A stretch of 64,000 nt of DNA from Pycnococcus provasolii. Taxonomy: Eukaryota > Chlorophyta > Pseudoscourfieldiophyceae > Pseudoscourfieldiales > Pycnococcaceae. Positions 2,708 to 25,451 of the stretch are shown here, piece after piece. Each line of letters starts with the position of its first letter. Position 1 is the first letter of the stretch. The stretch is from assembly GCA_938743325.2 (NCBI GenBank), contig OW568868.1:1-64000 (forward strand), written 5' to 3'. The notes below the pieces were generated by a model, which ran no database searches, was not told the DNA's origin, and was given only the letters and a program-made list of their open reading frames with translations. The position numbers and the translations under genes were made by a program.

Positions 2708-4000
2708 CTAATTTATCTCATCGGCATTTGGCACGTCAAAACGTGAGCTGGCACCATCTCGTCGCGAAGCAAGTATAAAGTTGTTGTTCGGCAAGCGATC
2801 TTCACCATCGTTCAAAGAAGGTAAGCCGTAGAAGGTGGCAAAACGCTTCGCCGTATCATCGCTGGCATCCGAATTGGCTGCATCAAATTCCACAGGCGGA
2901 GCGAAGCGCACGCCATATTCTGCCGCATGAGATCTTGCCGCCTCAGCTAGTGTGCCGTAATGGCCCGTAGATTGCTCATGCTCAGTCGTCGTCAACTCGC
3001 CACGCTCGACGTAGGCGCAGAGAAAGCATCTCGAAGCCGCGGATCGGCCAACGCAGCATCCACGCCGGCCCGTACCATTCACGACGATGGGCAAGGGAGC
3101 ACCTTCACGCACCACGGCATGCAGTGCAAATCGTCCAAAGTCGTTGCGAGCCTTGTCCATCTCATCGAATGTCCACCTTGCAATCAGGTACTCGCCCAGC
3201 GGATGGCCATGTGCAAAAGAGGCGCCAGGAGTGCGCACCGTAGCAAAGCGCGCGAGAGTGCCGCCGTCCAAAGCCACGCTCCATACGCGCGCTTCATCGA
3301 GGCTACCAAGAAATGCCTGTGCCATGTCAGGCTTCGATGCATGAATGCTCTCCTCCACGGCACGCGCCAGCACCTCCCCGACGGCGAACGAGCGCTTCGT
3401 TCCTACCCCTACACGGATCGGCCCGCTGTCGCCAACGAACAGTGCGCGCGATGTCCCACGAGCAATCGCCTTGCCGTCCACGTACAAAGTCCTGACCCGT
3501 GCCACGGGATCGTACATCGCTGCGTAGTGATGCCAAGTAAGAGGACTGTGTGGTGGCCGTGACGAAGCGTCCGCAGCGCCAGGGTCAGGTGAGTCCACTG
3601 GAAGCTCGAACAAGCCTTCGAGAGCATTTCGACCGCCGGCGGCGGGAAACGAAAGTATCAACGCGTCGCGTGATCCACCCGCACCACCCGAGCCGCCTAC
3701 GAGCGGCGTGCCGCCGGGGGCACGTGCTGCATCGGGCTGTGCGGCGAAACCGAAAAAGAGCGGTGCGCCGAGCTTGAGCGCGTCAAGAGCTTCGCTCCCA
3801 CCATTCGCTTGGTCAAACGCGGCGTAGGTAATGGGTGCAGAGGCTCGCACGCCGCAACTAAATAGAGCCTCGCTTCGTCCGCCGAGATTTCGTGCACGCC
3901 TTGCCCAGATTTCAAGCGTGAAGCCGCCATCACTGCCACCGAGCACTGATGCCGCGCCAGGCGCTTCAAAGTACGCAGCGGTCAGCGAGTCGCGTGGAAC

Positions 4001-4031
<31 letters not shown>

Positions 4032-6907
4032 TCGTCGACGTACGCGGGATAGGTACCCAGCGGCACGGTGTCGTGAGGGTACAGCCAAGCTTCACCAATC
4101 GCCGCGGGCGCGCCACCAGCTGGAGCACCTCCTAAGTACGCACGGTGATCAGGTGGTGCACCGTCCCTGGGAGGAATGCGCTGCGATGACATCGTGGCTT
4201 CATCACCCATCGTCGCTTCGCGCACGTCGGACGACGGATCTCCAAACGGCGTTGGCCAAGTACCGAGTCCAGGAACATGAGCTTGCGCTTTCGATGGACG
4301 GGCGACACCACTGCGTGCATCTAACGGCACGAATGCACTGGTTCCTATGCCACCCGCATACGGACCTACCTCGAGATAGCCATCACCGCCAGTTTGCCCC
4401 GTCATACCATCGTAGCCGCCAGAGGGGCCAGGTGTGGCATAATGATGATACATGCGAGAATCTTGTGACGCGAATGGAGATTTCACACGAGCATGTGGTT
4501 CAGCAATTGGTGAGACGAGCGCCGCGTCCGTTGGCGGCGACAGGTACGACAGCTGCGGAGGCCTGCTAAAGCCGAGAAGGGTTCTCCTGCCCTCTCCCAC
4601 TGCGATGGATGGCACAGTTCCTTTGCCGTCCATCTCAAAGTCACTCAGAGTGCGCCGACGGCGAATGGCTGGAAGTGGCGGAGCGTTTGCATCATCATTG
4701 TTTTGCACGAGAAGTCGACGATGGTACAGCTTTCTTGTAGTCGCGTGAAGCCTTGCCATTGGCTCATCTGAAAGCACTCGTCGTCGTTGAGACGTGAGCC
4801 GACGACGTCGTCGAAGTGGGTCAGACACCACCTGTGGCGGGGGCGGAGCGAATGGCGGCGGTGAGGGTGGAGGAGGGCTGGGAACTTCGGAGGATGAAAG
4901 TGTCGAAGAAGCGGGCACGGGTGCAAGGTCGACGGCGAACTGGAGCCCCCAGACGCTTCCCACATGGCTGCGTGGACCGTTTACGACGAGGCCATCCTCG
5001 CGCACGGGATTTCCGCTCAGTTCGCAGATCGCATTAAAGCTTGCGCATGCTTCTGACTCAGCAACGCCGTCGTCGGCAGGTGCGCCAGCGAGCACGGTGG
5101 GTGGGTTGGCACGCACAAGCTCCAGAATCTCGTCCAAGCTTGGATCCAGCGGCAAATCGTCGACGCGATCTGCAAGCGCCTTGGAACTCGCCACGGAAAA
5201 GAAGAGTTCGTATCCCGGTGGTAGTGCACGCAGGCTCGGTGCATCGAATCCTGGTGTCATCCCCGGAACTACGGTTGCGCGCGCGCCGCTATCGTCCCTT
5301 GCAGGTTCTTCGAGTGGTGTGACGAAGAGCACTCCGGTATCGCTTGTGCGATTGCGATCCGCATCAACAAAAAACGCTTTGTCGTCCCAGTAGCGTGCCG
5401 CCGAAGCGTCTGCTCGGGGAGCTCCAACTGCAAGTTCGCGAAGTCGCATTGCAACAACGGATCCGCCCAGCACGACTTGCAGACCGGGTCCTTGTGTGAC
5501 GCCGCGTCCAAATAGGGATCCAGCGAACGAAGGTTCTGGCGTGCCTTGGATGCGCTTTGGCATTCCGGTTGGCATGCCTGTGCTGCCATCCAGGTGGCAG
5601 AGGAGCACTGAACCGACACCAGAATTCGCGTTTGGACAGCCAACGGCCACGAGTTGCGAAGACAGCAGCGCGACGGCCGCGCCGCATCGACTGCCAGGCG
5701 TGGCGAATCCTCCTAACGGGAGAAAGGTCACACGCGAGGCTGTCGCTCCACGTGTCAGTGTGAGCAAGAGCACCGCTCCCGCCGACGCTTGTGAACCAGG
5801 GGCACCCACCACGACGTCTGGAATTCCATCATCATTGACATCGGTGCCACCAGCACAGGACGAGCCGAAGGACGATCCAGCTTGAAGGACTCCGTCTGGC
5901 AAGCCACCAACTCCCGATTCGTCGTTTCGCGGGGCAATGTCAGAAGTCGCCCACGTCGATCCGTCTGCTTCAACAAGGTGCACGCGCAATCCTCCACGTC
6001 GTCCGTTCGCTTCGCCGAGCAGTCCGCCACCTGGGACTCCAACGGCAAAATCGGGCACGCCATCGCCATCGACGTCGCCAACGCTGCAAACAGCTTCGCC
6101 AAATCGCGCTCCACCCGTGCTTGCTGCTGCGTCGACGTTGGTGGAGCTGGTGTGCTTTTGGTACTCGCGTATTGACAGATCTCGGCGCATCAGGAGAAGA
6201 AAGGTCGCACCCGCATTTGCGTTTGTACCAGGCGCACCGACGACGGCGTCGTCAATACCGTCTCCGTCGACGTCGCCAACGAAGCTCAGAGCAGCACCGA
6301 ATCTTGCACCTGGCTGATATTCTGGGGAGGGAATGCGTCGCCAAAAGGCGACTTTTCCGCTGGAAATGTCAATGAGCTGTGGCAATTCTGACGGTAAGCC
6401 GTAAAATGATGGACTGGCGAGCACTTCGGTATTCCGAAGTGCTTCCTTCAGCACAGGCTCGATTTGGGGGGGAGGAGGAGGTGGTGGAGGTGGTGGTGGT
6501 GGCGGTGGCGGTGGCGGCGGTGGTGGTGGTGGTGGTGGCGAGATTCTTGGTGGCAACCCATAAAAGGAAGGCGGCACTGGCGGCGGAGGTGGATGAGCTG
6601 AGGTTGTTTGTTCGGCGTCGGCAGTGCCAAGGTCTTGCACCCCAACCAACCCGTAGAACGTGACGGACTCTTTGAACGGCGAAAACATAGGTGCGTGCGT
6701 CTGATGTGGCTCAGAGTTTGGCTGAGGCATGGGTATGTGCCTAAAAGCGCCAGGTGCCGTGAGCATTGATGGCGGGTACGCGTTCCATCGCAGTTGCGAC
6801 GACGGCCCACAAGCCAGGTTGCCACCAAGGCAAGCTGCAAGGTCCTGTGCGTTGGAGCGAGCGACGAGCAAGAGCACGCAGCTTACGAGTCGGAACGCAG
6901 CCGGCAT
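2708..6907 (-). CDS. Secreted FG-GAP repeat and LamG-domain protein with polyproline linkers
   Basis: Encodes 1399 residues starting MPAAFRLVSCVLLLVARSNA, a clear signal peptide. A long polyproline run (about residues 125-148) precedes FG-GAP repeats of the integrin-alpha type (about 195-480), with calcium-loop motifs GDVDGDGIDD, GDVDGDGVPD and TDVNDDGIPD, each followed by VVGAPG-like strings. A Ser-Pro-rich and Arg-rich middle follows, then a concanavalin-like LamG domain (about 978-1260) with FTLEIWARR, WHHYAAMYD, LYVDGK and LDEARVWS. The short motif FYGL(P/V) occurs four times, near the polyproline stretch and near the C terminus. The layout suggests an extracellular matrix or adhesion protein; the ligand is unknown. 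It shares an upstream region with the divergent LRR gene at 7517. No introns are evident. Confidence 0.85.
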
Positions 6908-8520: not shown

Positions 8521-8825
8521 CATTTTTTTTTTAATAACGTGAGGCTCCCGACCCAGACTGCCAGCCAGAAAACCGGACTGGACACCCGTCACAAGTCGGC
8601 ACAAGCAAGTCACACCCCTGACAGCCTGAACTAAACTCTCACGCGCGGAGAGCAAGCGGGGTCGTGCAGAGTGGCGGCGCACGCACGCGTGACGCGCACT
8701 TGCTTTTTCGCCAAAGTGGGCCATCTCACGTCTGCGCGCCCTTAACTCGTAAGGCGTGCGTGAAGCACTAAAGCCGAGAGGGTGCGGTCGTTGGGCTGGG
8801 TTCAGCGCGTCACCCGTCGTTGTCA

Positions 8826-11800
8826 ATGATGGTGCTCGAAGATATCTCCACGCCGCCATCTGAAGAGGAGTCCGGGGGAGAAGGACGACTGGTGGTGCCC
8901 GAACGCATCATCTCCACGGCACCACTTCAGGACTCTGACAAAGAAGGTCGGCTGGCGCTCGGACGCTATGAGCACGATGACGAAGGGACGTTGACTATTC
9001 CGAATACCGCGTCGACACCCAAGCAGCACGCCGATCGCTCAAAGAAGGCGATCTTCCCAACAGAAACAACGGCGAGACGCCTCGAAAGCTTCGGCGAAAA
9101 TACGGCACGAAGACACAGACCTTCTGCCGGTGCTGCTTGGGCTGAAGAGAAAACCACAGCACTGGAGCCGGCACAGATCCTCAACGCAGCGCGTGCTGCG
9201 CAGCATGACTTGGCTACGAAATACGCCAAAATGGCCAGGGCGCTCGCGTGGATGGCTATCTTCGGAGCCTACCTTTGGTTCCAAGTCGCGCTTTCGCGCA
9301 ACGCGACGATATTCCAGGTGCAAGGTGCAATCGAGCGCATGCTCTTTCGCAAATTGCCACAGGTGGAACACCAGGGCTTGCATGGTGCGGTTGCGTGGGT
9401 GGAGAATGCACTTGTCGCACCAGCCTGGCGCGACCCGCAGTGCGGCGATGGCATATGCGAAATGCCGTACGAAATGCCGGGTTCGGGACCTGGAGGGTGT
9501 CCGGCTGACTGCGGCTCAGTGAAGGAGGTGAAAGCCGTCGTGCGCGTCTCATCTGACTTCCGGTATCCGCGAATTTCGTCGAGGACCCTTCGGCAGCCTG
9601 CACGCTGGAACATTTGCCACCGCGACGACGACCGCGCTCGCGTCAGCGGAAAGGACCTTTGCTATTTTGGCGACGGCATTGCCTTTGAAGACACCAAGCA
9701 AGTCCAGGTGGCGGATGTGATGATGCCGCCAGGCGTTTGGTACCTGAGCATCGACGGAGATCCCGCAGGGAGAACGTCGGGTTTCATCGTCGATGCCAAC
9801 TTGCTGTCCACGCGTGGGTTGAAGGCGGCATACGACGCCACCACCAAAGCAACGACATCGTCAACTATCCAAAACACTTCGGCGGTTGGGGACATTCATC
9901 TTTCTGCAAACGCCAAGACGTGGGGACATTGTGACGTGCCTCGACAAGCACTTCGACCTCTCGATGGGGTCATGGCTCGTGCTCCTGCTCGTCGTCGACA
10001 TCTTGCGCAGGAGCAGCAGCAGAGGTGCGACTTCAGCTGCCCTCCGGCAAATATTGCAACGGTGACGTGCCCGTGCGATTCGTGCGCCCAGGATCCAAGC
10101 TCCGCGGAGTGCGGATCTTCCACCACGGCGTACTGCTTGGCATTCGATGGAAGGGGATTTCCCGCACCGCCGCCCAGCCCGCCCCCGCAGCCGCCATCGC
10201 CGCCGCCTCCTGCTTTACACGCCATCATAAGCCGGGTGATGCTCGTGGGATACACGATTGCGACGTTCGACGATACGGTCCAGGCCGCATACAAAGACGG
10301 AGTGAAGGCGCAGTTGACGAGGGGCGATCTCATCATCGACAGCAACGCAGTGGTCATAACGAATATAGCAGACGCAGCGAGAAGAAGGAGCCTTCTCCAA
10401 GACACTGCCGTTGTCGTCGACTATCGTGTCGAGCTTGCAACGCTCTCTGAGGTGTCTGGCGCTGTCAATTGGCTCAAATCGAGTCAGGCAAGCGTGATGC
10501 AAATCACACATCGAGCTGCCGGTCTCGATCAGCTCTCACTTCTGATCGTGCTCTTGGAGCCTGCTCTCGCCACACCTCCCTCGCCGCCAAAACTGCCGTC
10601 GCCACCGCCCCTGCCGCCGCCACCACCTAGCCCTGCGCCGCCGCCAAGCCCTCAGCCGCCATTGAGCCCTTCACCACCTCCACATTCGCCAATAGCAGCA
10701 AATTCAATCCAAGCAGTGCAGATGCAGTGCGATGCCACGTGCTCCGAGGTATGCGAAATCGGAGCGAGATACTTTCCGGAAATCCTTCAGGGTGCTGCGC
10801 CAGAAGCTTCAATTGGCGATGGCATACAGTGGCCGTCATTTTCACCGAGTTCCAAGGAGTACGAAATCGCCATCCCTGAGGCACTGGCTGCAATTGCAAA
10901 TGAGTGGCCAACTATCACGCTGTATGCCATCCCAAAGGTGAACACATCATACATGTTCGTCGAATGCCTCGAGCAAGGGTGCCTAATATCAAATACAGGC
11001 CCCGACCAGGAACTTTCTTACACCACAGTCACGTACCCTCCATGCGGACCAGCCACCCTTATACTGAAAGTATGCTGCGATGAAACGTGCGTTGGCGAGC
11101 AAAGCAATTACACAATAATATTCATTGGTCAGAAACCGGCATGTCCACCGCCACTTCCTCCACCTCCGCCTCCGCCCCCTTTGCCTCCGCCTCCACCCCC
11201 TTCGCCTCCTCCCCCTCCAGCTGTGTGGGTGCAGGAAGGCGCCGATGTCGACGGCGAGGCGGCAGGCGATGCGTCTGGCAGGTCGGTGTCCCTGTCTTCG
11301 GACGGCTTGCGCATCGCGATCGGCGCTCCATCAAATGACGGTAGTGGTGCCGACGCCGGACACGTGCGCGTGTACGAGTACGCGTCCGGATCGTGGACGC
11401 AGCTCGGCGCCGACATCGACGGCACGTCGGCGGGCGATAAGGCTGGTTCTTCGGTGTCGCTCTCATCCGACGGATCGCGACTCGCCGTCGGAGCACCTGG
11501 CAGCTGGGGAGGCGCGCACGGCGGGTACGTGCGCATCTACGAGTACGCGTCCGGATCGTGGACGCAGCTTGGCGCGGATCTCACCGGGCTCGCGACGGGC
11601 GACTATTGTGGATCTTCCGTGTCGCTGTCGTCGAACGGCTCGCGCGTTGCCATAGGAGCAACCACGGGTGGCGCATCATCCGGCGGATACGTGCGCGTGT
11701 ACGAGTATGCGTCCGGATCGTGGACTCAGCTCGGTGCCGCCATGACATCTGAGGGGACGAGCGATGACTTCGGAGCCTCAGTGTCGCTGTCGTCCGATGG

Positions 11801-14800
11801 GACGCGCGTCGCGGTGGGAGCCCCTAAGAACTCAGAGGCGAATGGCTCCGAGTCGGGGCACGTGCGCGTATTCGAGTACAGCACGTCGTCTGGATCGTGG
11901 TCGCAGATGGGCGCCGACATCGACAGCGAGGCGGCGGGCGACTTCGCGGGCGTGTCTGTATCGCTTTCGTCAGATGGCACGCGCGTCGCCGTCGGATCAT
12001 CGGGGAACGACGGTAACGGCAACTACGCCGGTCACGCGCGTGTGTTTGCGTACGCGTCGGGTTCGTGGACGCAGCTTGGCGCCGATATCGATGGCACCGC
12101 GACGGAAGACCAGTTCGGCAACAGCGTTTCGATCTCATCGGACGGGTCACGCGTCGCCATCGGGGCGCCCCAGCTGTACAAGGGAAGTACATGGCCGGGC
12201 TACTTGCGTGTGTTCGACTACGTCTCTGGCACGGGTTGGATGCAGCTGGGTTTTGACGTGCAAGGCGAGGCTGGAGAAGACGATTTTGGAGTCGTATCTC
12301 TGTCAGGCAACGGCATGTACGTCGCCGTCGGAGCCCCCGAAAACGACGGCGTGGGTAGCAATGCCGGGCACGTACGCATCGTGAACTTGCAGTATCGCAA
12401 TCAGCCACCTCCACCGCCTCCGCCGCCTCCGCCCCCGCCACCTTCCCCACCGCCGCCTCCCCCGCCGCCTCCCCCGCCGCCTCAACCACCTCCGCCTCCA
12501 CCTCCACCTCCGCCTCCGCCCCCTTCGCCACCGCCTCCGCCCCCTTTGCCTCCGCCTCCACCCCCTTCGCCTCCTCCCCCTCCAGCTGTGTGGGTGCAGG
12601 AAGGCGCCGATGTCGACGGCGAGGCGGCAGGCGATGCGTCTGGCAGGTCGGTGTCCCTGTCTTCGGACGGCTTGCGCATCGCGATCGGCGCTCCATCAAA
12701 TGACGGTAGTGGTGCCGACGCCGGACACGTGCGCGTGTACGAGTACTCGTCCGGATCGTGGACGCAGCTCGGCGCCGACATCGACGGCACGTCGGCGGGC
12801 GATAAAGCTGGTTCTTCGGTGTCGCTCTCATCCGACGGATCGCGACTCGCCGTCGGAGCACCTGGCAGCTGGGGAGGCGCGCATGGCGGGTACGTGCGCA
12901 TCTACGAGTACGCGTCCGGATCGTGGACGCAGCTTGGCGCGGATCTCACCGGGCTCGCGACGGGCGACTATTGTGGATCTTCCGTGTCGCTGTCGTCGGA
13001 CGGCTCGCGCGTTGCCATAGGAGCAACCACGGGTGGCGCATCATCCGGCGGATACGTGCGCGTGTACGAGTACGGGTCCAGTTCGTGGACTCAGCTCGGT
13101 GCCGCCATGACATCTGAGGGGACGAGCGATGACTTCGGAGCCTCAGTGTCGCTGTCGTCCGATGGGACGCGCGTCGCGGTGGGAGCCCCTAAGAACTCAG
13201 AGGCGAATGGCTCCGAGTCAGGGCACGTGCGCGTATTCGAGTACTCGTCTGGATCGTGGTCGCAGATGGGCGCCGACATCGACAGCGAGGCGGCGGGCGA
13301 CTTCGCGGGCGTGTCTGTATCGCTTTCGTCAGATGGCACGCGCGTCGCCGTCGGATCATCGGGGAACGACGGTAACGGCAACTACGCCGGTCACGCGCGT
13401 GTGTACGAGTACACGTCGGGTTCGTGGACGCAGCTTGGAACGGACATCGATGGCACCGCGACGGAAGACCAGTTCGGCAACAGCGTGTCGATCTCATCGG
13501 ACGGGTCACGCGTCGCCATCGGGGCGCCCCAGCTGTACAAGGGAAGTACATGGCCGGGCTACTTGCGTGTGTTCGACTACGTCTCTGGCACGGGTTGGGT
13601 GCAGCTGGGTTTTGACGTGCAAGGCGAGGCTGGAGAAGACGATTTTGGAGTCGTATCTCTGTCAGGCAACGGCATGTACGTCGCCATCGGAGCCCCCGAA
13701 AACGACGGCGTGGGTAGCAATGCCGGGCACGTACGTATCGTGAACTTGCAGTATCGCAATCAGCCACCTCCGCCGCCTCCGCCGCCTCCGCCCCCGCCAC
13801 CATCGCCGCCACCTCCGCTTCCGCCGCCTCCCCCGCCGCCTCAACCACCTCCGCCTCCACCTCCGCCTCCACCTCCGCCTCCGCCGCCTCCGCCGCCTCC
13901 GCCCCCTTCGCCACCTCCACCGCCTCCGCCTCCAGCTGTTTGGGTGCAGTTAGGCAACGACGTGGATGGTGAGGCTGCTCCGGACGTCTCTGGGAGGTCT
14001 GTATCAATTTCATCGGACGGGTCGCGCGTCGCGATCGGTGCTCCGTTTAATAACTTTGATTACGGTCACGTGCGCGTGTACGAGTACTCGTCCGGATCGT
14101 GGACGCAGCTCGGTGCCGACATCGATGGCGAGGCGATGTTGGATTGGTCCGGCGATTCGGTGTCGCTGTCATCCGATGGATCGCGCGTCGCCATCGGCGC
14201 CCCTTCCAATGCCGACAACGGGGCATACTCCGGTCACGTGCGCGTGTACGAGTATGCGTCCGGATCATGGACGCAGCTCGGTGCCGACATCGACGGCGAG
14301 GCGGCGCAGGATGTTTCCGGCGATTCGGTGTCGCTGTCATTCGATGGATCGCGCGTCGCCATTGGAGCTCCATTAAATGACGGTAGTGGTGCCGACGCCG
14401 GCCACGTGCGTGTGTACGAGTATGCGTCTGGATCATGGACGCAGCTCGGCGCAGACATCGATGGATCGACGGCGGACGATAGGGCGGGAGCTTCGGTGTC
14501 GCTATCATCCGACGGATCGCGACTCGCCGTCGGAGCACCTGGCCACTCTGGAGTATCCATAACCGGGTCCGTGCGCATCTACGAGTACGCGCCCGGATCG
14601 TGGACGCAGCTTGGTGCCGACATCGACGGCGAGGCGGCGGGCGACTTTTGTGGATCTTCCGTGTCGCTTTCGTCAGATGGATCGCGCGTTGCCATCGGCG
14701 CCCTAAAAAATGACGGAAACGGGGCAGACTCTGGTCACGTGCGTGTGTACGAGTACACTTCTAGTTCGTGGAATCAGCTTGGCGCAGACATTGACGGTGT

Positions 14801-17800
14801 CGCCGGCAATGACGAATTTGGAACTGTCTCTCTCTCAGCGGACGGCTCACGCGTCGCCATCGGCGCTTCGGGCAATGACGGCATCGGCTCAAACTCCGGT
14901 CATGTGCGTGTGTATGAGTACGAAGGAGGCACATGGACGCAGTTGGCTCTCGACCTTAATGGCGAGGCGGCTAATGATCAGTTTGGAGCTTCGGTATCTC
15001 TATCGGCTGACGGATCGTATCTCGCCATAGGAGGCCCTGGGCATGCAAGTAGTACCGGTCACGTACGCATCGTGAACTTGCAGTATCGCAACAGTCCGCC
15101 CCCTCCGCCGCTTCCTCCGTCTCCGCCTCCTCCCCCTCCAGCCGTGTGGTTGCAAACTACCCCAGATGTCGATGGCGAGGCTTCATTTGATTACTCGGGT
15201 TTTGCGGTATCCGTCTCTGCAGATGGGCAAAGATTCGCCATTGGAGCATATCAAAATGATGCTGGTACAGGGATGTTTACTGCTGATCCGGGTCACGTAC
15301 GCGTGTACCAGTACTATCAAGGATCGCCATGGGTGCAGCTGGGTGCTGATATCGATGGAGTACTCTGGATGGCATTATGTGGCTGGTCGGTACATCTATC
15401 GTCAGATGGAAGTAAACTCGCTGTTGGTTGTCCCGGTTACACTACTTATACGGGGCGTGTAATAGTGTACGAGTACTCGTCAGGATCGTGGAATTCGATC
15501 AGCGGCACAGGATTGTCGGGGGAAGCGGCCAACGACTTCTTTGGATACTCCGTGTCTCTCTCATCGGACGGAACGCGTGTCGCTGTAGGAGCACCGGGCA
15601 ATCAAGGGAATGGCGTCGACGCAGGCCATGTTCGCGTTTTTGAGTATGTCTCCGGATCGTCGTGGATACAGCTTGGAGTCGATATTGACGGTGAGGCAGC
15701 GGGTGATGCAACCTCTGCGTTCAATCTGGTTGGAATGAGCGTCTCGTTATCGCCCGATGGATCGCGTCTTGCCGTCGGAGCTACGCACAATGACGGCGCA
15801 GGTGGCACCGATTCTGGCCATGTACGCGTGTACGAGTACTCGTCTGGATCGTGGACGCAGCTCGGTGCCGACATCGACGGTGAGGCAGCGGACGACAAAT
15901 CTGGATGGTCTATTTCGCTTTCATCGGACGGATCGCGCGTCGCCATTGGAGCTCCCCATAACGGCGGAAACGGCGCCAACTCTGGTCATGTGCGCGTGTA
16001 CGAGTACGCGTCGGGGTCGTGGACGCAGCTCGGTGCCGACATCGACGGCGAGGCATCGGAGGACAATTCTGGGTGGTCAATCTCTCTATCGTCAGATGGA
16101 TCTCGTATCGCCATAGGAGCAACCGGCAACGACGGTAACAACGGCTCTAACTCTGGTCACGTGCGTGTTTTCGACTACATGGCTGGGACGGGATGGGTGC
16201 AGCTTGCTGCCGATATAGATGGTGAGGCAACGAACGATAAATCTGGCATTGCAGTTTCTCTGTCGTCAGATGGCTCGCGCGTTCTTATTGGATCTCGTCT
16301 GAATGGTGGTAACGGGCATGCGCGCATGTACGACTTATATTATCGCAACAGTCCGCCTCCGCTTCCGCCTTCACCGCCTCCGCCTCCAGCTGTGTGGGTG
16401 CAGGAAGGCGCCGATGTCGACGGCGAGGCGGCTGATGACTACTCTGGGAGGTCTGTATCAATTTCAACGGACGGATCACGCGTTGCCATCGGAGCTCGTG
16501 GGAACGACGGCAGTGGTGCCGACGCCGGACACGTGCGCGTGTTCGAGTACTCGTCCGGATCGTGGACGCAGCTCGGTGCCGACATCGATGGATCGTCGGC
16601 GGGCGATAAGGCTGGTTCTTCGGTGTCGCTATCATCCGACGGATCGCGACTCGCCGTCGGAGCACCTGGCAGCTGGGGAGGCGCGCACGGCGGGTACGTG
16701 CGCATCTACGAGTACGCGTCCGGATCATGGACGCAGCTTGGCGCGGATCTCACCGGGCTCGCGACGGGCGACTATTGTGGATCTTCCGTGTCGCTGTCGT
16801 CGGACGGCTCGCGCGTTGCCATAGGAGCAACCACGGGTGGCGCATCATCCGGCGGATACGTGCGCGTGTACGAGTATGCGTCCGGATCGTGGACTCTTCT
16901 CGGTGCCGCCATGACATCTGAGGGGACGAGCGATGACTTCGGAGCCTCAGTGTCGCTGTCGTCCGATGGGACGCGCGTCGCGGTGGGCGCCCCCAAGAAT
17001 GCCGAGGCGAATGGCTCCGAGTCGGGGCACGTGCGCGTATTCGAGTACTCGTCTGGATCGTGGTCGCAGATGGGCGCCGACATCGACAGCGAGGCGGCGG
17101 GCGACTTCGCGGGCGTGTCTGTATCGCTTTCGTCAGATGGCACGCGCGTCGCCGTCGGATCATCGGGGAACGACGGTAACGGCGACTACGCCGGTCACGC
17201 GCGTGTGTTTGCGTACGCGTCGGGTTCGTGGACGCAGCTTGGAACGGACATCGATGGCACCGCGACGGAAGACCAGTTCGGCAATAGCGTGTCGATCTCA
17301 TCGGACGGGTCACGCGTCGCCATCGGGGCGCCCCAGCTGTACAAGGGAAGTACATGGCCGGGCTACTTGCGTGTGTTCGACTACGTCTCTGGCACGGGTT
17401 GGATGCAGCTGGGTTTTGACGTGCAAGGCGAGGCTGGAGAAGACGATTTTGGAGTCGTGTCTCTGTCAGGCAACGGCATGTACGTCGCCGTCGGAGCCCC
17501 CGAAAACGACGGCGTGGGTAGCAATGCCGGGCACGTACGCATCGTGAACTTGCAGTATCGCAATCAGCCACCTCCTCCGCCTCCGCCTCCAGCTGTGTGG
17601 GTGCAGGAAGGCGCCGATGTCGACGGCGAGGCGGCTGATGACTACTCTGGGAGGTCTGTATCAATTTCAACGGACGGATCACGCGTTGCCATCGGAGCTC
17701 GTGGGAACGACGGCAGTGGCGCCGACGCCGGACACGTGCGCGTGTTCGAGTACTCGTCCGGATCATGGACGCAGCTCGGTGCCGACATCGATGGATCGTC

Positions 17801-18812
17801 GGCGGGCGATAAGGCTGGTTCTTCGGTGTCGCTCTCATCCGACGGATCGCGACTCGCCGTCGGAGCACCTGGCAGCTGGGGAGGCGCGCATGGCGGGTAC
17901 GTGCGCGTGTACGAGCATGCGTCCGGATCATGGACGCAGCTTGGCGCGGATCTCACCGGGCTCGCGACGGGCGACTATTGTGGATCTTCCGTGTCGCTGT
18001 CGTCGGACGGCTCGCGCGTTGCCATAGGAGCAACCACGGGTGGCGCATCATCCGGCGGATACGTGCGCGTGTACGAGTACGCGTCCGGATCGTGGACTCA
18101 GCTCGGTGCCGCCATGACATCTGAGGGGACGAGCGATGACTTCGGAGCCTCAGTGTCGCTGTCGTCCGATGGGACGCGCGTCGCGGTGGGCGCCCCCAAG
18201 AACTCAGAGGCGAATGGCTCCGAGTCGGGGCACGTGCGCGTATTCGAGTACTCGTCTGGATCGTGGTCACAGATGGGCGCCGACATCGACAGCGAGGCGG
18301 CGGGCGACTTCGCGGGCGTGTCTGTGTCGCTTTCGTCAGATGGCACGCGCGTCGCCGTCGGATCATCGGGGAACGACGGTAACGGCAACTACGCCGGTCA
18401 CGCGCGTGTGTACGAGTACGCGTCGGGTTCGTGGACGCAGCTTGGAACGGACATCGATGGCACCGCGACGGAAGACCAGTTCGGCAACAGCGTGTCGATC
18501 TCATCGGACGGGTCACGCGTCGCCATCGGGGCGCCCCAGCTGTACAAGGGAAGTACATGGCCGGGCTACTTGCGTGTGTTCGACTACGTCGCCGGCTCAG
18601 GCTGGACGCAGCTGGGTTTTGACGTGCAAGGCGAGGCTGGAGAAGACGATTTTGGAGTCGTGTCTCTGTCAGGCAACGGCATGTACGTCGCCATCGGAGC
18701 CCCCGAAAACGACGGCGTGGGTAGCAATGCCGGGCACGTACGCATCATGAACTTGCAGTATCGCAACAGTCCGCCCCCTCCTCCAGTAGGCCGGCGGCGC
18801 TTGTTACAAGAT

Positions 18813-18844
<32 letters not shown>

Positions 18845-21800
18845 TGTGTGGACTGAACCTGATATGGCGTGTTCTTTGATTTTCCCGGACATTGCCTCGC
18901 CAACGTCTGATTCGCCGCCATGGCAGATTGCCATTGAATCTCCTCCACCCTTTCTCCCGCCGTACCCTCCCCCCCTGCCTCCACCCCCTTCGCCCCCCCC
19001 GCCGCCAAGTCCACCTCCACCACTGCCGCGACTCGTGGTGGCGGTTTCCAACGAAACTCTTCCCGCACCACCTCCGAACATGTCCCCGCCACCACCACCT
19101 CCCGATTTCCAGCTCCCAGTGATCGAACTCATCGGGTCTGAGGAGATGGATATTGCTCAAGATGCGGAATACGTGGATTTGGGTGCAAGCTGCGTTGACA
19201 ACGTCGACGGTGCGATTGTTGTCGGCATTCCAGATGGCCTTACTAAGGTGAACACGACCGTTCCCACGCTTCCCGAATTACCTCACGTGCTCACGTACGA
19301 GTGCGTCGATCAGTCTGGAAATCGTGCGATCGCACGTCGACGCATTCATATCCTGGACAGCAGATGTTCGGAAGCTTCGAAGAGGACTGGAGTCCGCGAG
19401 TTCCTTTGTCCTGGTTTATATGTGAGCGATGGGTCGCCAGCCTGTAGCGTCTATGGCATCTGCAGCGAGGGTTCTGCGTGGACAAATCCCGATGCAGAGA
19501 ATGCCCAGCTCCCTGCCGCGTCCACGGCCGTAGACGCGATACCGCCACGCATCTTGCTTGTTGGCAGGAAGGCTGATGCGACTATGGCACGAACGGCAGA
19601 TGGCATTCTTGTGCTTCGCGAACAGGTCATTCAAGGTGAGGCGTACGTCGATCCCGGATACGTCTGCTTGGATCAGACGGATGGCGACATCAGCAGCAGC
19701 GTGAGCGTGTTCGGCGAAGCTGCGGTAGACACAACGCGTCCAACGGACGATCCTTTTGTGATTCGATACACGTGCACAGATCTCTCGGGTGTTCGTGCCG
19801 AGGAGGTGCAGCGATGGATTACTGTAGACGCGATATGTGCAGATGGTGAAAAGGTGTGCGAGGATGGGAGCTGCCCAGTCGATGGATACTGCATTGCAAA
19901 CAAGCCAACCGCTCTCGACGCTGCAAAGATAGCTGAGGAAATTGTCGTGGTGGACGAGCCACCAACCATCACACTGGTTGGAGACGAGTTCATCGAGGTC
20001 GATGCTAGCGGGTATACCAAGTGTGACGATGGCGTTACCGTGTTCTCGCTTTGTGATCGTGGTGCAACGGCAACGGATTCCACCGATGGTGATCTCACGC
20101 CTTATGTTAAGGCGTGTGGTCGCAATTTTCAAAATGAGGGCCTTTCCGGATGTGCGATCAGCGGCGCGGACTTCCCAGGAATGTATGAGATTGAATTCAG
20201 CGTCGTGGACAGTGCTGGGCACGAGGCTCATTTGATGCGAAAGGTCATGATTAATGTGGAGTGCGGACCTGGTGAAGTGCGATGCCTGGATGGCGTGACG
20301 TGCGTGCCTGAGGGTAAGCCTTGCGAATCTGACATTGCCCCTGAAATCGAGCAGGCGGCAGCACCACCTGCGCCGATGATACCTCCGAATGTCACGTTGC
20401 AAGGTCCGACGGTGATAACGTTGCCAAGATTTGCTAGATACTCATCATGCGCCACCGATCAAATTTCCTCGGACAGTGTGGTGTGCGACAAAGGAGCCGT
20501 CGCTCACGACGACATCGATGGCAATCTGACCAGCGCGTTGCTTGTTTGCCCTCCCGAGACTTGCATGGCATTCGGGTGTCCAGGCCACGAACTGTGGCGC
20601 AAGGGTGTTCACAGCTGTGTCAATACGTCGGCACCCGTGGGAACAATATTTGATGTGAAATTCGTTGCATTTGATACCGACGGCGGACACGGATCCGCGG
20701 CACGCACCCTTGCAATCGGCGTGCCATGCCCAGAAGGACAGTACTGGTGTCCAGCCAATTCGCCAGCAGGACGGTGTGAAAGGACTTCATGCGAAACAAT
20801 CGAGAGTATGGCTAACGAAAACAATCTACCACCCTCTCTTCAAGTGGACGCTGACTTTTCGCTTGGACCGAAAATCGAATGGCGAACACCACCTCGCGAT
20901 GAAATGCCCTTCGGCTTCATTTATGGGCAAACGCCGTGGAAAAGCCTTGGTATCTATGAGGCTGCAAACCCCATCGCCGCGTGCACGGGAGATTTGTTGA
21001 ATGCCACCTTCCCGCAGTGTGCTGCCACTGCTCAGGACAGCGTCGACGGGGATGTGTCATTCACGATTCAGGTTACAAATCGTGAAGGGGACTGCACGCC
21101 TGGTGTTTTAGCAATAGGTCTTTGTCCACCAGGCATTCATCACTTCAACTTCTTGGCGGTTGATAGTGATAGAAACGTGGGATACGGAGACACCACAATT
21201 CAAATTGAAGTCTTGCAGGGATGGGAAGAGAGGTATCAGATGTCAATGAAGGGTGAGTGCGACCCCCTCCTTGACCCGCGATCAGGTTCGAGTTCTCGCG
21301 TGCGGTCCAGTGTGGCAAGATTACTTATGGTGCATTCTGGTCGCGTGCGCATACAGACGTGCAGCAAGACCGATTCAGCGAACGTACAAGTGGAGATTGT
21401 TGTTGTTCGCACGTTGGAAGATGGTGGACCAAAACGTCCGGATCAGATTGAAGACGATCCGAATCGACCACAGCGGCGCACGGTGCTAGCTGAAAGCGAT
21501 CACCCATTTGCCTCTGGAGTAGATGTGGGTGAATTCATCGGCTTTACTTTTCAAACCGCACAGGCTACCAGCTATGATCCGAACGGGTCGTGGGCATTGA
21601 GCCAGCGCATACGGGCGGCGGCTATTGCAGCAGATGACATTGCCAGGCAGATGGCGTGGGTCGTATCTGAGACGAAGCTTACGGAGCAGCAGATGATTGG
21701 CATTGCTGACAGCGTGAATAGCTCTAGCGCCGTCGTTGGTACAATCGCTGGTTCCGTCGACGATACCGTGCAAGCATTGCTCTCACAGCAGGCTCAGCTA

Positions 21801-24800
21801 GCAACGATGTCCACGGATCTCTTCAAATTGTTGGACCAGAACGTGTCAACCATCGCTGAGACGAAGGAAGCGCAACGGGTAGTTTCTACGGCAGGTCACA
21901 TGTTCAAGGCCCAGGACCGTGCCGACCAGCTGCAAGCGTCGGTTGAGGCAGCATTCAAGGCTGTATCTGACGTGAGCGGAATTTCTGCCGATGTGGCGTC
22001 AGCTTGCCGCGGTGCCTATGGAGCACGGCACATGTACTACAGCATCAGTGGGACTTCGATTTTCCGACAGCGAATCGAGGAGGGTGCTAATAATAATAGC
22101 ACTGGGACTTCTTCTTCTTCTTCTTCGCAGGAATCGAGCAATGACAAGAATACAAATGTTACGGGACTCCGTCGACGCCAGCTGGGCACCGTCGCGAGAC
22201 GGATTCTTCGCGTGAAGTCGTCGTCGCGCAGTAATCAGCAGTTGCTTGAATCTGCGTTTGGGCCCTCTGAAAGTGCATGGGCTGGGTACTCGTCATCATC
22301 ATCGCCTCTCACCATCGACGATCGTCTGCGTTTTTCGAACTATTCTGGATACAGCAAGCCGCGAAAATTTGGAGGAGTGACTGGACGGCTTCGTGTTGTT
22401 GGTGGCGTGCTTGTAACGCAGCGGCGTGCTGCGATAGGACTGGGGTGCTTTGGGCAGGGTGTGTCGTCGTCGTCGTCCACCAATCATCATGATCGTTTCC
22501 AAGATCTACATGGTGCAATTCGTTGCTTGCGACAGGATGCCTCCAATCGTTTTGGCATTGACCCGATGTTCGTGAAATTGGACGTGCCTCCGGGCATGGA
22601 AGATGCCGATCCTACGACGAGCTTGCGCCGAGACATTTTGTACGACCCCTCGCTGCGAGAGATTCAAGGGGCATTCTACAACGCGTCCGAAATCGACTGG
22701 AACACTGTTCCTTATGCATTTTTCAGCCGCGGCTACGATCGTGGGTGCACCAAATCCCCGTGTAGTCGTAGCAGCAATTTGGCAAACGAAATCGAGAAGG
22801 CTCTCTTCGACGTTTACATCGATGGCACACTCATGCGGGAGAGTGCAAGGCGCATTCTCATGTACATGAACCTCGCTCGATTTGTCAACCGACACACTCG
22901 CGGCGTTGATATTCGCGTGATCTTGCACGATGCACAGGCGATGGCCTTCTTCGATGTGCGCATATCGCTAAAACTGACAAGAGGGGGGGAGCTATCTCCG
23001 ACCACCTTCGTACGTCACATTCCTCTTACGGATTTCCTTGATGGCACCAGAGAAAACGTGGCTCTATTCACCGTCATTATCGGCGTCAGCGTGATCGCAG
23101 TTATTCTTTGCATGAATTCGATGCGCGACTTGCGGAATTTGGCAAATCTGTTCTACGACTCCATCGTCATGAGGATGCGTCAGCGCATTGTGAGAAGGCA
23201 CTTCTTTGCAGATGTGTGGGTACTCTTGGTAGAGGCGCTCAAAATCGCGATCCCACTCTCTTTGCTTTCTGGAAGTATCGTACTATTGGTGTACTACTTC
23301 CACTTCTCGCGTTTCTTTACTTACGAGAGCAAGTACCGCTGGTATGACGGCGATGGATCCGCGGCGGCACGCCCGCTACTGATTAAGCGCGATGCTCCGG
23401 CTCCTGGTCTCGTCGAAGGATTACCTCGTGGTACGTTTCGCCACTTGCTTCCGCCAGATACCAACGACGTCGATGCCTACATGCGCCTTTTGGAGAAACT
23501 TGACCGGATGAGTGAAATGCACACGGGCTACGCTATGCTACAGATTCCAATCTTATTGGGGATTGCCGCGAATGTTGCGCGGTTGTTCATGACGATGCAA
23601 GGACAGTCAATATTCCTGCGCGTCTTGCAGAAGTCGATTCCCGATATGGTAATCCTCGTCCTATGTCTGGCAATCCTTACCATTCCGTGCGCATACGAGC
23701 TTTATCTGCTTGCGGGTGATCGTATGAAGTCACTTTCCCGCGTGGGTGATGCCATGCAGAGTCTTGCCGAATACCAAATCGGCGACACGTTTGGCTTAAA
23801 GTATAGCGCATTAATGGGGATCCAGTATGGGCAGTTTGTTACCCCTGCGGAAGTTGTCGCCATCATAGCGATTCGCATATTCTATCCATTCATGACCACG
23901 TTTCTCCTAATGCAATTCATAGCTGCTATTCTTGTTGACTATCTCGGATGGGAAATGCAACGCCGCACTTTAAGGAAGCTGTTTGATAAGAAGCATATGA
24001 CGAACAATCAAAGCATGTCGGATCGTCTGATGCACGCGTCAGGGACCCTTTCTCTTCTGCGCAATCATGTGAGCGCTGCGTTATATGCCGTGGGTTGGAA
24101 AAATTTGTCCGCATTCTTTCTGTCAGGCAATCTGAAATGGCTTCATCCTGGAAAAGGGATGAGAGGCTTTCAGGGTGGTAGCGCCCGCACGGCAGACACC
24201 TATTTTGCTGATGGTGCACGCAACGCACCCACTTTGACGAGGGTGAACACATTTTCAAGGAAGTTCACGATTATGGATGATCCAAGCACTCCACACGCTC
24301 GTGCACATGCCACAAAACTATTTCACTCAATCACTGCCAAACCAAGGAAATCGCGCAGCCTGTCACCCTTTCAGCCGCGTACTGCCGATGACGATCTTGA
24401 TGATGAATATGCTGCTGCGGATCATGTACATCGCATCATGACCTCTGAATCATATACGGCGGGCCAGGGGGAGACGACGCAGCCCCCAAAGAAACCAAAG
24501 CAGGATTATTCGGAACTACCCTCGGTTTGGGTTGGAGGAGAAGATTCTTCCGACAAGCCTATCTCTCTTCGCAAGGATGGTCTGAAAAGCGATGTTGCGC
24601 GGTACTTGCGCATGAATAATGCGAAGGATCGCTACGAGCTTGTTGTACCAGTCATTGGATTGCTCGGACCGAAAGCACTTGCAGACTTGCTCTACTACTG
24701 CTTCCTCTTGCAGAATGGTGAGTCTGCTGCCACCACCACCAATCTTATGCAAAACGAACTTGCGTCGAAGGGGGCCGCGATGAAAGTTCGTGTGCAAGAC

Positions 24801-25451
24801 GATAGTTACCGAGATTTCTTAGAAGCGAACACGCAGGGGGGAATTCATCCTGAATCGGAAAAGCGGCCGTTTACCACGATGATGCTCAAGATTTCGAATA
24901 GCCTTGGTGAGCGCATCATTCATGATCTTGGTTGGCGACCGGGCTCGGAGTTCACCACATTGAAAGGGGAAAATCTTGTCATGGCAGTGCTTCGTCGTGC
25001 TCGCGACACAGCAAGGGGCATGAAAGCAATCTCTGCTGACACGTTGGAGCAAAACTCTTCGCTGAAAGACGTCGTGATTGATCTCATGCGCGGCGGTGGT
25101 GGTAAGGCTGGTCTAACTCGCGCCGGATACCTCAGATCTAAGTTGGTCAGAACAGTGTCTCGTGTGATGAGCGGGAAAATTGGCGTAAACCGCCTATTGT
25201 TCGACGGACTGTGGAAGCTCTTTGGCCTATTCCTGAATGCCATCTCGCCAAACGAGATCGGGCGTCGTCGTAAGGAACGTGAGAAAAGGAGAAAAAGTTA
25301 TAGAACCAGGAGAAATGACAGCGAGTTCTTCAACACCTTCACGACGGAATGGGCCTCGGACGACGAAGGTGAAGAGTACGATTCGGTTTCTACGACGACG
25401 CCACGCCATGCAGCTGGTCAGCTTATGCGTGTGCTCTCTTCGAAGTTGTAA
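8826..25451 (+). CDS. Giant polycystin/PKD2-like channel with FG-GAP propeller ectodomain
   Basis: One uninterrupted frame of 5541 residues (ATG at 8826). In order: cytosolic N terminus; membrane helix about 140-158; Cys-rich CGDGICEMPYE module (about 206-226); Pro-rich linkers; six FG-GAP-like beta-propellers (about 799-3314), each of seven blades with the pattern DGEAAGD, SVSLSSDGSRVAIGAP, GHVRVYEY, GSWTQLG, separated by polyproline; a polyQ tract (about 3330-3341); four or five Ig-like/HYR-like modules (about 3427-4130; strings VDLGASCVDNVDG, YTCTDLSG); a region with the character of the polycystin TOP domain (about 4490-4745); then helices near 4743-4763, 4797-4827, 4905-4922 and 4938-4964 and a pore/S6 region at 4999-5042 (FVTPAEVVAIIAIRIFYPF); a basic cytosolic tail of about 500 residues. 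With no signal peptide and one N-terminal helix, the topology matches polycystin-2 with a giant insertion in the S1-S2 loop. A mechanosensory or ciliary role is inferred from Chlamydomonas PKD2. Confidence 0.85.
11220..12400 (+). repeat. Propeller block 1 (seven FG-GAP-like blades)
   Basis: Starts AVWVQEGADVDGEAAG and ends IVNLQYRN. Seven blades can be counted. Nearly identical at the DNA level to the blocks at 12585, 16389 and 17592. Confidence 0.9.
12585..13755 (+). repeat. Propeller block 2 (near-identical to block 1)
   Basis: The first 140 bp and most later stretches repeat block 1 base for base, with only scattered substitutions, for example TACTCGTCC for TACGCGTCC in the first blade. 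Seven blades, flanked by polyproline linkers on both sides. Confidence 0.9.
13935..15092 (+). repeat. Propeller block 3 (divergent)
   Basis: Same seven-blade plan (AVWVQLGNDVDGEAAP at the start, VNLQYRN at the end), but the sequence differs clearly from blocks 1, 2, 5 and 6. Blades 2, 3 and 5 carry the consensus ADIDGEA. Confidence 0.85.
15141..16350 (+). repeat. Propeller block 4 (most divergent)
   Basis: Seven blades beginning AVWLQTTPDVDGEAS and ending MYDLYYRN. Blade 2 (ADIDGVLWMALCG) and blade 3 depart most from the consensus. Confidence 0.85.
16389..17567 (+). repeat. Propeller block 5 (near-identical to block 6)
   Basis: Starts AVWVQEGADVDGEAADDYSG; from blade 2 onward almost base-for-base like blocks 1 and 2. 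The linker to block 6 is only a short Pro run. Confidence 0.9.
17592..18767 (+). repeat. Propeller block 6 (near-identical to block 5)
   Basis: Begins with the same bases as block 5 and ends IMNLQYRN before the GRRRLLQDQQQ polyQ stretch. Together the six blocks give 42 blades. Confidence 0.9.

What the first reader, a model, noticed from the sequence alone, without database searches (positions are those of the whole stretch)
8826..25451. Polycystin-2-like channel with a 4500-residue ectodomain inserted between S1 and the TOP domain
There is no signal peptide. A single N-terminal helix is followed by a huge extracellular part, then a polycystin domain and the remaining helices and pore. The channel itself therefore seems to carry matrix-like propellers and Ig-like modules, instead of partnering with a separate PKD1-type receptor. 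In Chlamydomonas, PKD2 anchors the mastigoneme through its extracellular loop; here anchor and filament-like domain may be one polypeptide. I know of no described protein with this layout.
Basis: partly seen in the sequence, partly recalled or inferred. Interest (0 to 1): 0.85.

Follow-up and report, generated by a model that had tools for sequence, protein, structure and literature searches.

The report
Unsplit giant polycystin receptor-channel, algal family
A photosynthetic alga with ciliary genes encodes a 5,541-residue polycystin-type ion-channel protein whose huge surface domain is built into the channel's own extracellular cap; it is one of about 23 such genes with different surface heads, and it looks like the one-piece counterpart of a Chlamydomonas flagellar-hair anchor that is known as two separate proteins.

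Summary
Window 8826-25451 is one open frame of 5,541 aa: cytosolic N-terminus, one helix, about 4,590 residues outside, five more helices, cytosolic tail. As a single sequence its C-terminus misses Pfam's polycystin models. A profile of 21 family members finds a chain that fits Chlamydomonas MST3 (E 4.5e-37), PKD2L1 (2e-14) and PKD2 (4.5e-11). 26 genes of this genome carry the same N-module (helix S1, then CGDGxCE); each of the 26 has the channel module downstream on the same strand, 21 of 26 in one unbroken frame. In 23 the gap is 1,527-5,727 codons. Heads vary (FG-GAP, C-type lectin, RCC1) before an Ig-like stalk. By spacing, the insert lies inside the TOP domain, not before it. The layout has a precedent: MST3 and seven other Chlamydomonas proteins have an ectodomain-polycystin plan but lack S1, which SIP supplies (PMC11015965, passages). 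New here: S1 in the same chain, no stand-alone SIP detected, a family with swapped heads, and a dibasic motif before TOP in 15 of 21 genes. Function (surface or ciliary receptor subunit with conventional PKD2) is inferred.

The parts
8826..25451 (+). whole gene, 5,541 aa, one open frame
8826..9239 (+). cytosolic N-terminus (aa 1-138), no cysteine, no signal peptide
   Evidence: hydropathy and residue counts
9240..9296 (+). first helix = S1 (aa 139-157)
   Evidence: such a helix 47-59 aa before the Cys motif in 26 of 26 genes
9297..9518 (+). putative TOP alpha-helix followed by the W-DPxCGDGxCE...CPADCG motif; with S1 this is the SIP-like N-module
   Evidence: alignment of 26, invariant W, C, G, C, E, C, D, C; helix assignment by spacing only
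9519..11219 (+). start of ectodomain: N-proximal part, Pro-rich segments, two RRR-L-Q type motifs (aa 390 and 520 from Met)
11220..12404 (+). FG-GAP propeller 1, seven blades
12585..13763 (+). FG-GAP propeller 2, after a 60-residue poly-Pro linker
   Evidence: 97% aa identical to propeller 1
13935..15095 (+). FG-GAP propeller 3, after a 57-residue poly-Pro linker
15141..16352 (+). FG-GAP propeller 4, after a 15-residue poly-Pro linker
   Evidence: only 4 blades by the strict motif
16389..17567 (+). FG-GAP propeller 5, after a 12-residue poly-Pro linker
17592..18770 (+). FG-GAP propeller 6, after an 8-residue poly-Pro linker
19107..21398 (+). Ig-like (PF16403) stalk region with Cys-rich spacers; ends approximate
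   Evidence: 52 bits, 2 stretches; the same domain in 18 of the 22 other giants
22197..22211 (+). RRILR, candidate processing site 65 aa before the RVVGG strand
   Evidence: motif at -42 to -72 in 15 of 21 genes; pattern chosen after seeing the sequences
22392..23057 (+). second part of TOP (polycystin) domain, aa 4523-4744
   Evidence: profile match to MST3, PKD2L1, PKD2
23058..23114 (+). S2
23235..23291 (+). S3, followed by the family block YRWYDGDGSA...RH
23535..23591 (+). S4
23637..23693 (+). S5
23775..23786 (+). QIGD, aligned with the polycystin selectivity filter
   Evidence: G[DE] kept in 19 of 21
23853..23909 (+). S6 (first part)
23943..25448 (+). cytosolic C-terminus, conserved in patches among paralogues
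   Evidence: matches within query 964-1204

Best explanation
It is an unsplit, MST3-type receptor subunit of a polycystin channel. Shown by sequence: one chain holds a first helix and a conserved N-module, a giant ectodomain, the second part of the TOP domain, S2-S6 and a cytosolic tail; the same chassis recurs in 26 genes, with a short loop in three (two of them read in full and conventional PKD2-like) and a giant insert in 23. Inferred from order, spacing and the conventional genes: the first helix is S1 and the insert sits inside the TOP domain. Inferred: the ectodomain reaches out from the cell or cilium surface, its six FG-GAP propellers on stiff hydroxyproline rods bind matrix, scale, hair or partner-cell glycoprotein, and the Ig-like stalk passes load or ligand binding to both halves of the TOP domain, which gates a cation pore made together with conventional PKD2. 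Inferred: a protease cuts at the dibasic RKLLR-type site before the TOP strand, as some protease cuts the loop of Chlamydomonas PKD2, leaving two associated chains.
For: Profile of 21 C-modules: best PDB match 9b4h_X, 8,572 aa (the length given for MST3 in PMC11015965), E 4.5e-37, then PKD2L1 2.1e-14, PKD2 4.5e-11, PKD1L3 5.3e-6; Nav-type channels from 6.9e-6 on. hhalign to an animal-type PKD2 of the same genome: probability 95%, E 1.8e-8. N-module: 26 hits, the same 26 genes found from a conventional PKD2 query, each with a C-module 703-5,727 codons downstream on the same strand, 23 of 26 in phase, 21 of 26 in one frame. N- and C-modules diverged together (r 0.88 over 21 genes; 0 of 5,000 permutations as high). 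The DNA pattern for CGDG[FLIMV]CE occurs 23 times in 32.3 Mb, all 23 in these genes, 0 in the reversed-pattern control, so no stand-alone SIP with that motif. Genes C1 (1,580 aa) and C23 (1,467 aa), over the PKD_channel cut-off, have the same N-module and the S2-S6 part. 15 Dynein_C and 51 LHC hits: cilia genes and photosynthesis. Dibasic site: 15 of 21 genes, shuffle mean 0.21 motifs in all; cutting C1 or C23 at theirs gives C-fragments of 100 and 94 kDa, near the 90 kDa reported for Chlamydomonas PKD2 (PMC10846610, passages).
Against: The N-module has no significant match to PDB chains and none by hhalign to the animal-type PKD2. The window's own S1 is the least hydrophobic of the 26 and another peak at aa 564-582 scores slightly higher. 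No structure could be predicted. 6 of 21 genes lack the dibasic motif, the pattern was drawn up after seeing the sequences, and the N-fragments predicted for C1 and C23 (77, 71 kDa) are far from the 140 kDa reported for Chlamydomonas. 5 of 26 genes are not in one frame in this assembly. No expression, localisation or current data. The near-identical propellers (94-97% aa) could be mis-assembled in number.
Confidence: 0.72

Rival explanations
1. The N-terminal helix is only a signal anchor; a separate SIP-like protein supplies S1, exactly as for MST3.
For: MST3 is proposed to work that way (PMC11015965, passages); the N-module has no direct sequence match to solved polycystin S1 regions.
Against: The helix, its spacing (47-59 aa) and the Cys motif are shared with the conventional PKD2-like genes, where it is the only helix ahead of the TOP strand; no stand-alone N-module was found by two protein queries or by the DNA pattern.
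Confidence: 0.12
2. The giants form homotetrameric channels on their own and need no PKD2.
For: Six helices; the filter G[DE] is kept in 19 of 21.
Against: Four giant ectodomains on one pore; the MST3 and PKD1 precedents are 1:3 with PKD2 (PMC11015965; for MST3 proposed there from modelling and proteomics); two giants (C5, C10a) have lost the filter glycine; conventional PKD2-like genes are present.
Confidence: 0.2
3. It is a non-conducting anchor: the pore is a relic, and the protein only ties an extracellular filament or coat to the membrane.
For: Chlamydomonas mutants suggest a structural role (PMC10846610, abstract and passages); the S6 sequence differs from that of the conventional genes, LLNFVLAII.
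Against: Filter G[DE] in 19 of 21 and the S6 QF pair in 18 of 21 are kept.
Confidence: 0.3
4. Two neighbouring genes, or an assembly or annotation fusion.
For: 5 of 26 genes are not in a single frame in this assembly; propellers are nearly identical in pairs.
Against: 21 of 26 genes show N-module, insert and C-module in one open frame on many contigs; co-divergence r 0.88.
Confidence: 0.03

Closest known systems
MST3 of Chlamydomonas reinhardtii (Cre06.g309951; PDB 9b4h chain X, matched by its length of 8,572 and its name)
   Same: Giant proline-rich ectodomain ahead of the same C-module (second part of TOP, S2-S6); best profile match; C-type lectin and Ig-like modules occur among the giants too; in the tree it is sister to the 22 giants sampled (89/84; alternatives not rejected)
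   Different: MST3 has a signal peptide and an extracellular free N-terminus and lacks S1 and two TOP helices (PMC11015965, passages); here these are in the same chain and the ectodomain is a loop fixed at both ends. I did not test for MST3's 42-fold poly-Pro repeat motif.
SIP (Small Interactor of PKD2), 361 aa, Chlamydomonas
   Same: Single helix plus part of the TOP domain, the role that the N-module appears to play here
   Different: Separate gene in Chlamydomonas; no stand-alone copy detected here.
Chlamydomonas PKD2 / conventional algal PKD2
   Same: S1, long extracellular loop, TOP domain, S2-S6; loop cleaved in Chlamydomonas (PMC10846610, passages)
   Different: In this genome's C1 and C23 copies the gap between modules is 703 and 739 codons and the loop has no propeller blocks (by eye)
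Animal PKD1
   Same: Giant adhesive ectodomain on a polycystin-type channel part
   Different: No LRR, PKD, REJ, GAIN or PLAT match by Pfam in the pieces scanned (14340-19439 not scanned); six, not eleven, helices by hydropathy; ectodomain between the first and second helix, not ahead of all helices

Membership tests
Polycystin (TRPP) channels | TOP/polycystin domain and PKD-type S2-S6 | tested here: met
   Profile against PDB, PKD2L1 2.1e-14 and PKD2 4.5e-11; hhalign 95%. Single-sequence Pfam search negative for the window; 5 of 21 members touch PKD_channel and 3 of 21 Polycystin_dom at E up to 1.
Polycystin (TRPP) channels | Six helices, both ends cytosolic, large extracellular part between S1 and S2 | tested here: met
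   Hydropathy only, (two further weak peaks, at 564 and 5272, discounted); N-terminus without Cys, ectodomain Cys-rich
Polycystin (TRPP) channels | S1 recognisable by sequence | tested here: inconclusive
   No match to PDB or to the animal-type PKD2 of this genome; shared with conventional PKD2-like genes C1 and C23
Polycystin (TRPP) channels | Filter LGD-like | tested here: met
   QIGD in the window; G[DE] in 19 of 21
Polycystin (TRPP) channels | Cation conduction, tetramer | not testable with these tools
   no experiment; structure prediction unavailable
MST3-type SIP-dependent subunits | C-module related to MST3 | tested here: met
   E 4.5e-37
MST3-type SIP-dependent subunits | S1 and TOP helices missing from the chain | tested here: not met
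   N-module in the same frame
MST3-type SIP-dependent subunits | Signal peptide, free extracellular N-terminus | tested here: not met
   138 residues before the only N-terminal helix; the helix starts at residue 32-347 from the first in-frame Met in the 26 genes
MST3-type SIP-dependent subunits | Poly-Pro repeat motif that sets filament length | not tested
   poly-Pro linkers listed only
MST3-type SIP-dependent subunits | Part of a mastigoneme or similar filament | not testable with these tools
   no localisation; MST1 sequence not at hand
PKD1 family | GAIN/GPS, PLAT, REJ, eleven helices | tested here: not met
   No such Pfam hit in the four pieces scanned (14340-19439, mostly propellers 3-6, not scanned); six helices

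The most novel reading that the evidence does not exclude
The giant ectodomain entered the TOP loop while S1 was still attached, and the two-gene MST3/SIP state of Chlamydomonas arose later by gene fission. That is the opposite order to the one proposed with MST3 (fission first, extra domains later). In the unsplit lineage a dibasic site next to the TOP domain does by proteolysis what fission did by genetics. The result is a channel chassis with a plug-in slot and swappable sensor heads, on which this alga has built about 23 receptor channels.
Probability: 0.35. Interest if true: 0.78.

Novelty: new variant of a known kind. Interest (0 to 1): 0.63.

Why it matters
MST3 plus SIP is the explanation I found in print for how flagellar hairs are tied to a PKD channel, and it rests on a proposed gene fission. 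This gene family is a candidate for the unsplit state and makes the order of events testable by sequencing more green algae. It also gives a natural set of some 23 polycystin receptors with different heads on one chassis, a way to ask what polycystin ectodomains sense, which is an open question for human PKD1/PKD2 as well. The dibasic motif gives a concrete candidate for the cleavage site of algal PKD2, whose mechanism PMC10846610 calls unknown.

Tried and rejected
Two separate genes: rejected. Non-polycystin ion channel: Nav-type chains match the same profile (from 6.9e-6 on), far more weakly than MST3, PKD2L1 and PKD2. Direct Pfam proof on the window protein: failed; reported as such. Direct sequence proof that the N-module is S1/TOP: failed against PDB, with the two conventional N-parts, and by hhalign. 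First tree: several rows were trimmed at the wrong place, giving MST3 another position; redone with alignment-based trimming. The redone tree puts MST3 beside the giants at 89/84, on a long branch; AU tests do not reject MST3 with the conventional PKD2s (p 0.149) or giants plus conventional PKD2s without it (p 0.114), so the order of events is open. Left out of both trees: C18 (fragment) and C38 (C-part not held); the C15 row is a fragment. Relatives outside this genome: two viral-contig scans gave no confirmed relative; the scan of bacterial genomes did not run. The RCC1 search is saturated (150 of 1,088 candidates scored) and tells nothing about the giants; the FG-GAP_2 search scored 150 of 195 candidates, so its counts are lower bounds. 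A membrane helix at aa 564-582: considered and put aside, since it is not conserved.
Full report
Observation. The window is the first 64 kb of contig C8 of an unnamed 32.3-Mb, 46-contig genome. The frame 8820-25451 is open, with the first ATG at 8826 and 5,541 aa. Hydropathy gives a helix at aa 139-157 (1.52) and five between 4745 and 5028. Two further peaks over 1.5, at 564-582 (1.54) and 5272-5290 (1.62), are put aside: the first holds charged residues and a proline, and in the 500 aa after the N-module only 2 of 26 genes show any such peak, at different places. The first 138 residues have no cysteine; the N-proximal and Ig-like parts of the ectodomain are cysteine-rich. This is the topology of a six-helix polycystin with both ends inside.

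Ectodomain. Six blocks of 387-404 aa are FG-GAP propellers: seven blades in five of the six by a strict motif; block 4 shows four but aligns end to end. Blocks 1, 2, 5 and 6 are 94-97% identical; blocks 3 and 4 are 59-67% identical to the others. The linkers are almost pure proline, 60, 57, 15, 12 and 8 residues. Behind the propellers comes an Ig-like region (PF16403, 52 bits), then a stretch leading to the TOP strand.

The channel part. As a single sequence it reaches no polycystin model in Pfam and nothing relevant in PDB by phmmer, except a faint hit to a huge chain, 9b4h_X, at E 3. In the same genome the C-terminal 1,263 aa find 25 genes at E up to 1, counting the window's own and two weak ones, C1 and C23. 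An alignment of 21 C-modules, the window's included (A1), made into a profile finds 9b4h_X at 4.5e-37, PKD2L1 at 2.1e-14, PKD2 at 4.5e-11 and PKD1L3 at 5.3e-6; Nav-type chains follow from 6.9e-6. 9b4h_X is 8,572 residues long and named a C-type lectin protein, which fits MST3 as described in PMC11015965 (8,572 residues, C-type lectin domains); the identification is mine. By profile-profile comparison the C-module also matches an animal-type PKD2 of the same genome (95%, E 1.8e-8). Filter-like G[DE] is present in 19 of 21.

The N-terminal module. Residues 101-260 of the frame find 26 places in the genome. A query from a conventional PKD2-like gene finds the same 26. In the alignment of 26 (A2) W, C, G, C, E, C, D and C of W-DPxCGDGxCE...GCxADCG are invariant, and the helix lies 47-59 residues before that motif in all 26. 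Each N-module has a C-module downstream on the same strand, 703-5,727 codons away; 23 of 26 are in phase and 21 of 26 lie in one unbroken frame (C38's C-module comes). The other five (C5, C10c, C15, C18, C30) are not explained. The two modules diverged in step (r 0.877 over 21 genes, 0 of 5,000 permutations as high), although the exact nearest neighbour agrees in only 8 of 21. The DNA pattern for CGDG[FLIMV]CE occurs 23 times in the genome, all in these genes, and never in the reversed control; the other three genes have variants of the motif. So no stand-alone SIP-like gene with this motif was found in this assembly; a divergent one cannot be excluded.

Where the insert sits. Three of the 26 genes have a short gap (703, 739 and 936 codons). 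Two of them, C1 (1,580 aa) and C23 (1,467 aa), were read in full and look like conventional algal PKD2: first helix, Cys motif, loop, TOP strand RVVAGMM, S2-S6 (my threshold shows five of the six helices in each). The animal-type PKD2 of the genome aligns weakly (19 bits) with human PKD2 through S1, a helix (DFWKFTEG in human) and then the strand RIRQLRV, and strongly (79 bits) further on. By spacing, the giant insert falls between that helix and that strand, inside the TOP domain. This placement is by order and spacing; no direct sequence match ties the N-module to human S1.

The family. 23 genes are giants (gap 1,527 codons or more). FG-GAP_2 lies inside at least 7 of them, with 32 of the 116 hits of a capped search. 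Ig-like PF16403 lies inside 18 of the 22 other giants, to which the window adds one; 32 of the 35 hits in the whole genome are in giants. C-type lectin domains: 6 hits in the genome, 4 of them in three giants. RCC1 repeats occur in one giant, C32. Pfam was run on the 500 residues after the N-module of 20 of the 22 other giants (C15 and C18 left out); 16 of these 20 showed no family at E 0.01. In the seven genes where a head and Ig-like modules were both found (window, C7 at 909 kb, C9, C11, C15, C26, C30) the head comes first.

A candidate processing site. [RK][RK].?[LI]L[QR] occurs once, 42-72 residues before the TOP strand, in 15 of 21 genes, the window included (RRILR); shuffles give 0.21 in all. 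The pattern was drawn up after seeing the sequences. C1 and C23 carry RKLLQ and RRLLQ in the loop; cutting there would leave C-fragments of 100 and 94 kDa. Chlamydomonas PKD2 is cut in the S1-S2 loop to fragments of 90 and 140 kDa by an unknown mechanism (PMC10846610, passages); the N-fragments computed here (77 and 71 kDa) do not match 140. Among ten other ORFs of the window the motif occurs once. After the N-module it occurs in 7 of 26 genes, C1 and C23 included. Cleavage is inference.

Relation to known systems. From passages of PMC11015965: MST3 has a PKD-like domain without S1, two TOP helices and an Ig-like domain; SIP carries this missing region; a 3:1 PKD2 to MST3:SIP complex is proposed; seven other Chlamydomonas proteins with large extracellular regions have the same gap; [quoted passage not shown] The present family suggests that large domains can be gained without fission. 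In the tree (26 rows) MST3 is sister to the 22 giants at 89/84 and the conventional PKD2s fall outside; AU tests do not reject the alternatives (p 0.149 and 0.114). So insertion-first is favoured only weakly.

How it may work. Marked as inference: a ciliary or cell-surface receptor subunit in a heteromer with conventional PKD2, the propellers on poly-hydroxyproline rods binding glycoprotein outside, load passing through the Ig-like stalk into both halves of TOP. The genome has 12 strong dynein heavy-chain ends among 15 Dynein_C hits, and 51 LHC hits, so it is a phototroph with cilia genes. Nothing here shows expression, place or current.

Print check. No described unsplit form was seen in the listings of these searches: polycystin/PKD2/mastigoneme, polycystin with FG-GAP and alga (0 papers), prasinophyte/TRP/polycystin, giant protein/TOP domain. 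Of the papers listed, passages of two were read (PMC11015965, PMC10846610), the rest only as listings. The library lacks most subscription papers and all preprints.

Noticed in passing
window 2708-6907 (-): 1,399-aa protein with a signal-peptide-like start, FG-GAP repeats and a Laminin_G_3 domain, transcribed away from the giant gene; two propeller proteins back to back.
   Followed up: no
window 40022-49759 (+): 3,245-aa open frame (GTG start) with no Pfam match at 0.01 and no PDB match at 0.01.
   Followed up: partly
window 53746-56778 (+): 1,010-aa lipoxygenase; best PDB matches are human-type arachidonate 5-lipoxygenase (E 1.7e-54), in 3 stretches.
   Followed up: partly
G000 contig C31, 133-143 kb and 360-366 kb: Twelve light-harvesting hits of identical score in two clusters, on both strands.
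   Followed up: no
G000, genome-wide: RCC1 repeats give 1,088 first-look candidates, a very large RCC1 family; only the best 150 were scored.
   Followed up: no
G000 C16:572k, C1:1164k, C15:133k (L005, L006, L007): Further polycystin-type genes whose held parts show seven or eight hydropathy peaks, a different class from the giants.
   Followed up: no
L045/L001 (C8:644k): Animal-type PKD2 of the same genome has its own Pro-rich insert at a later place in the TOP domain, so TOP has taken inserts at two places.
   Followed up: partly
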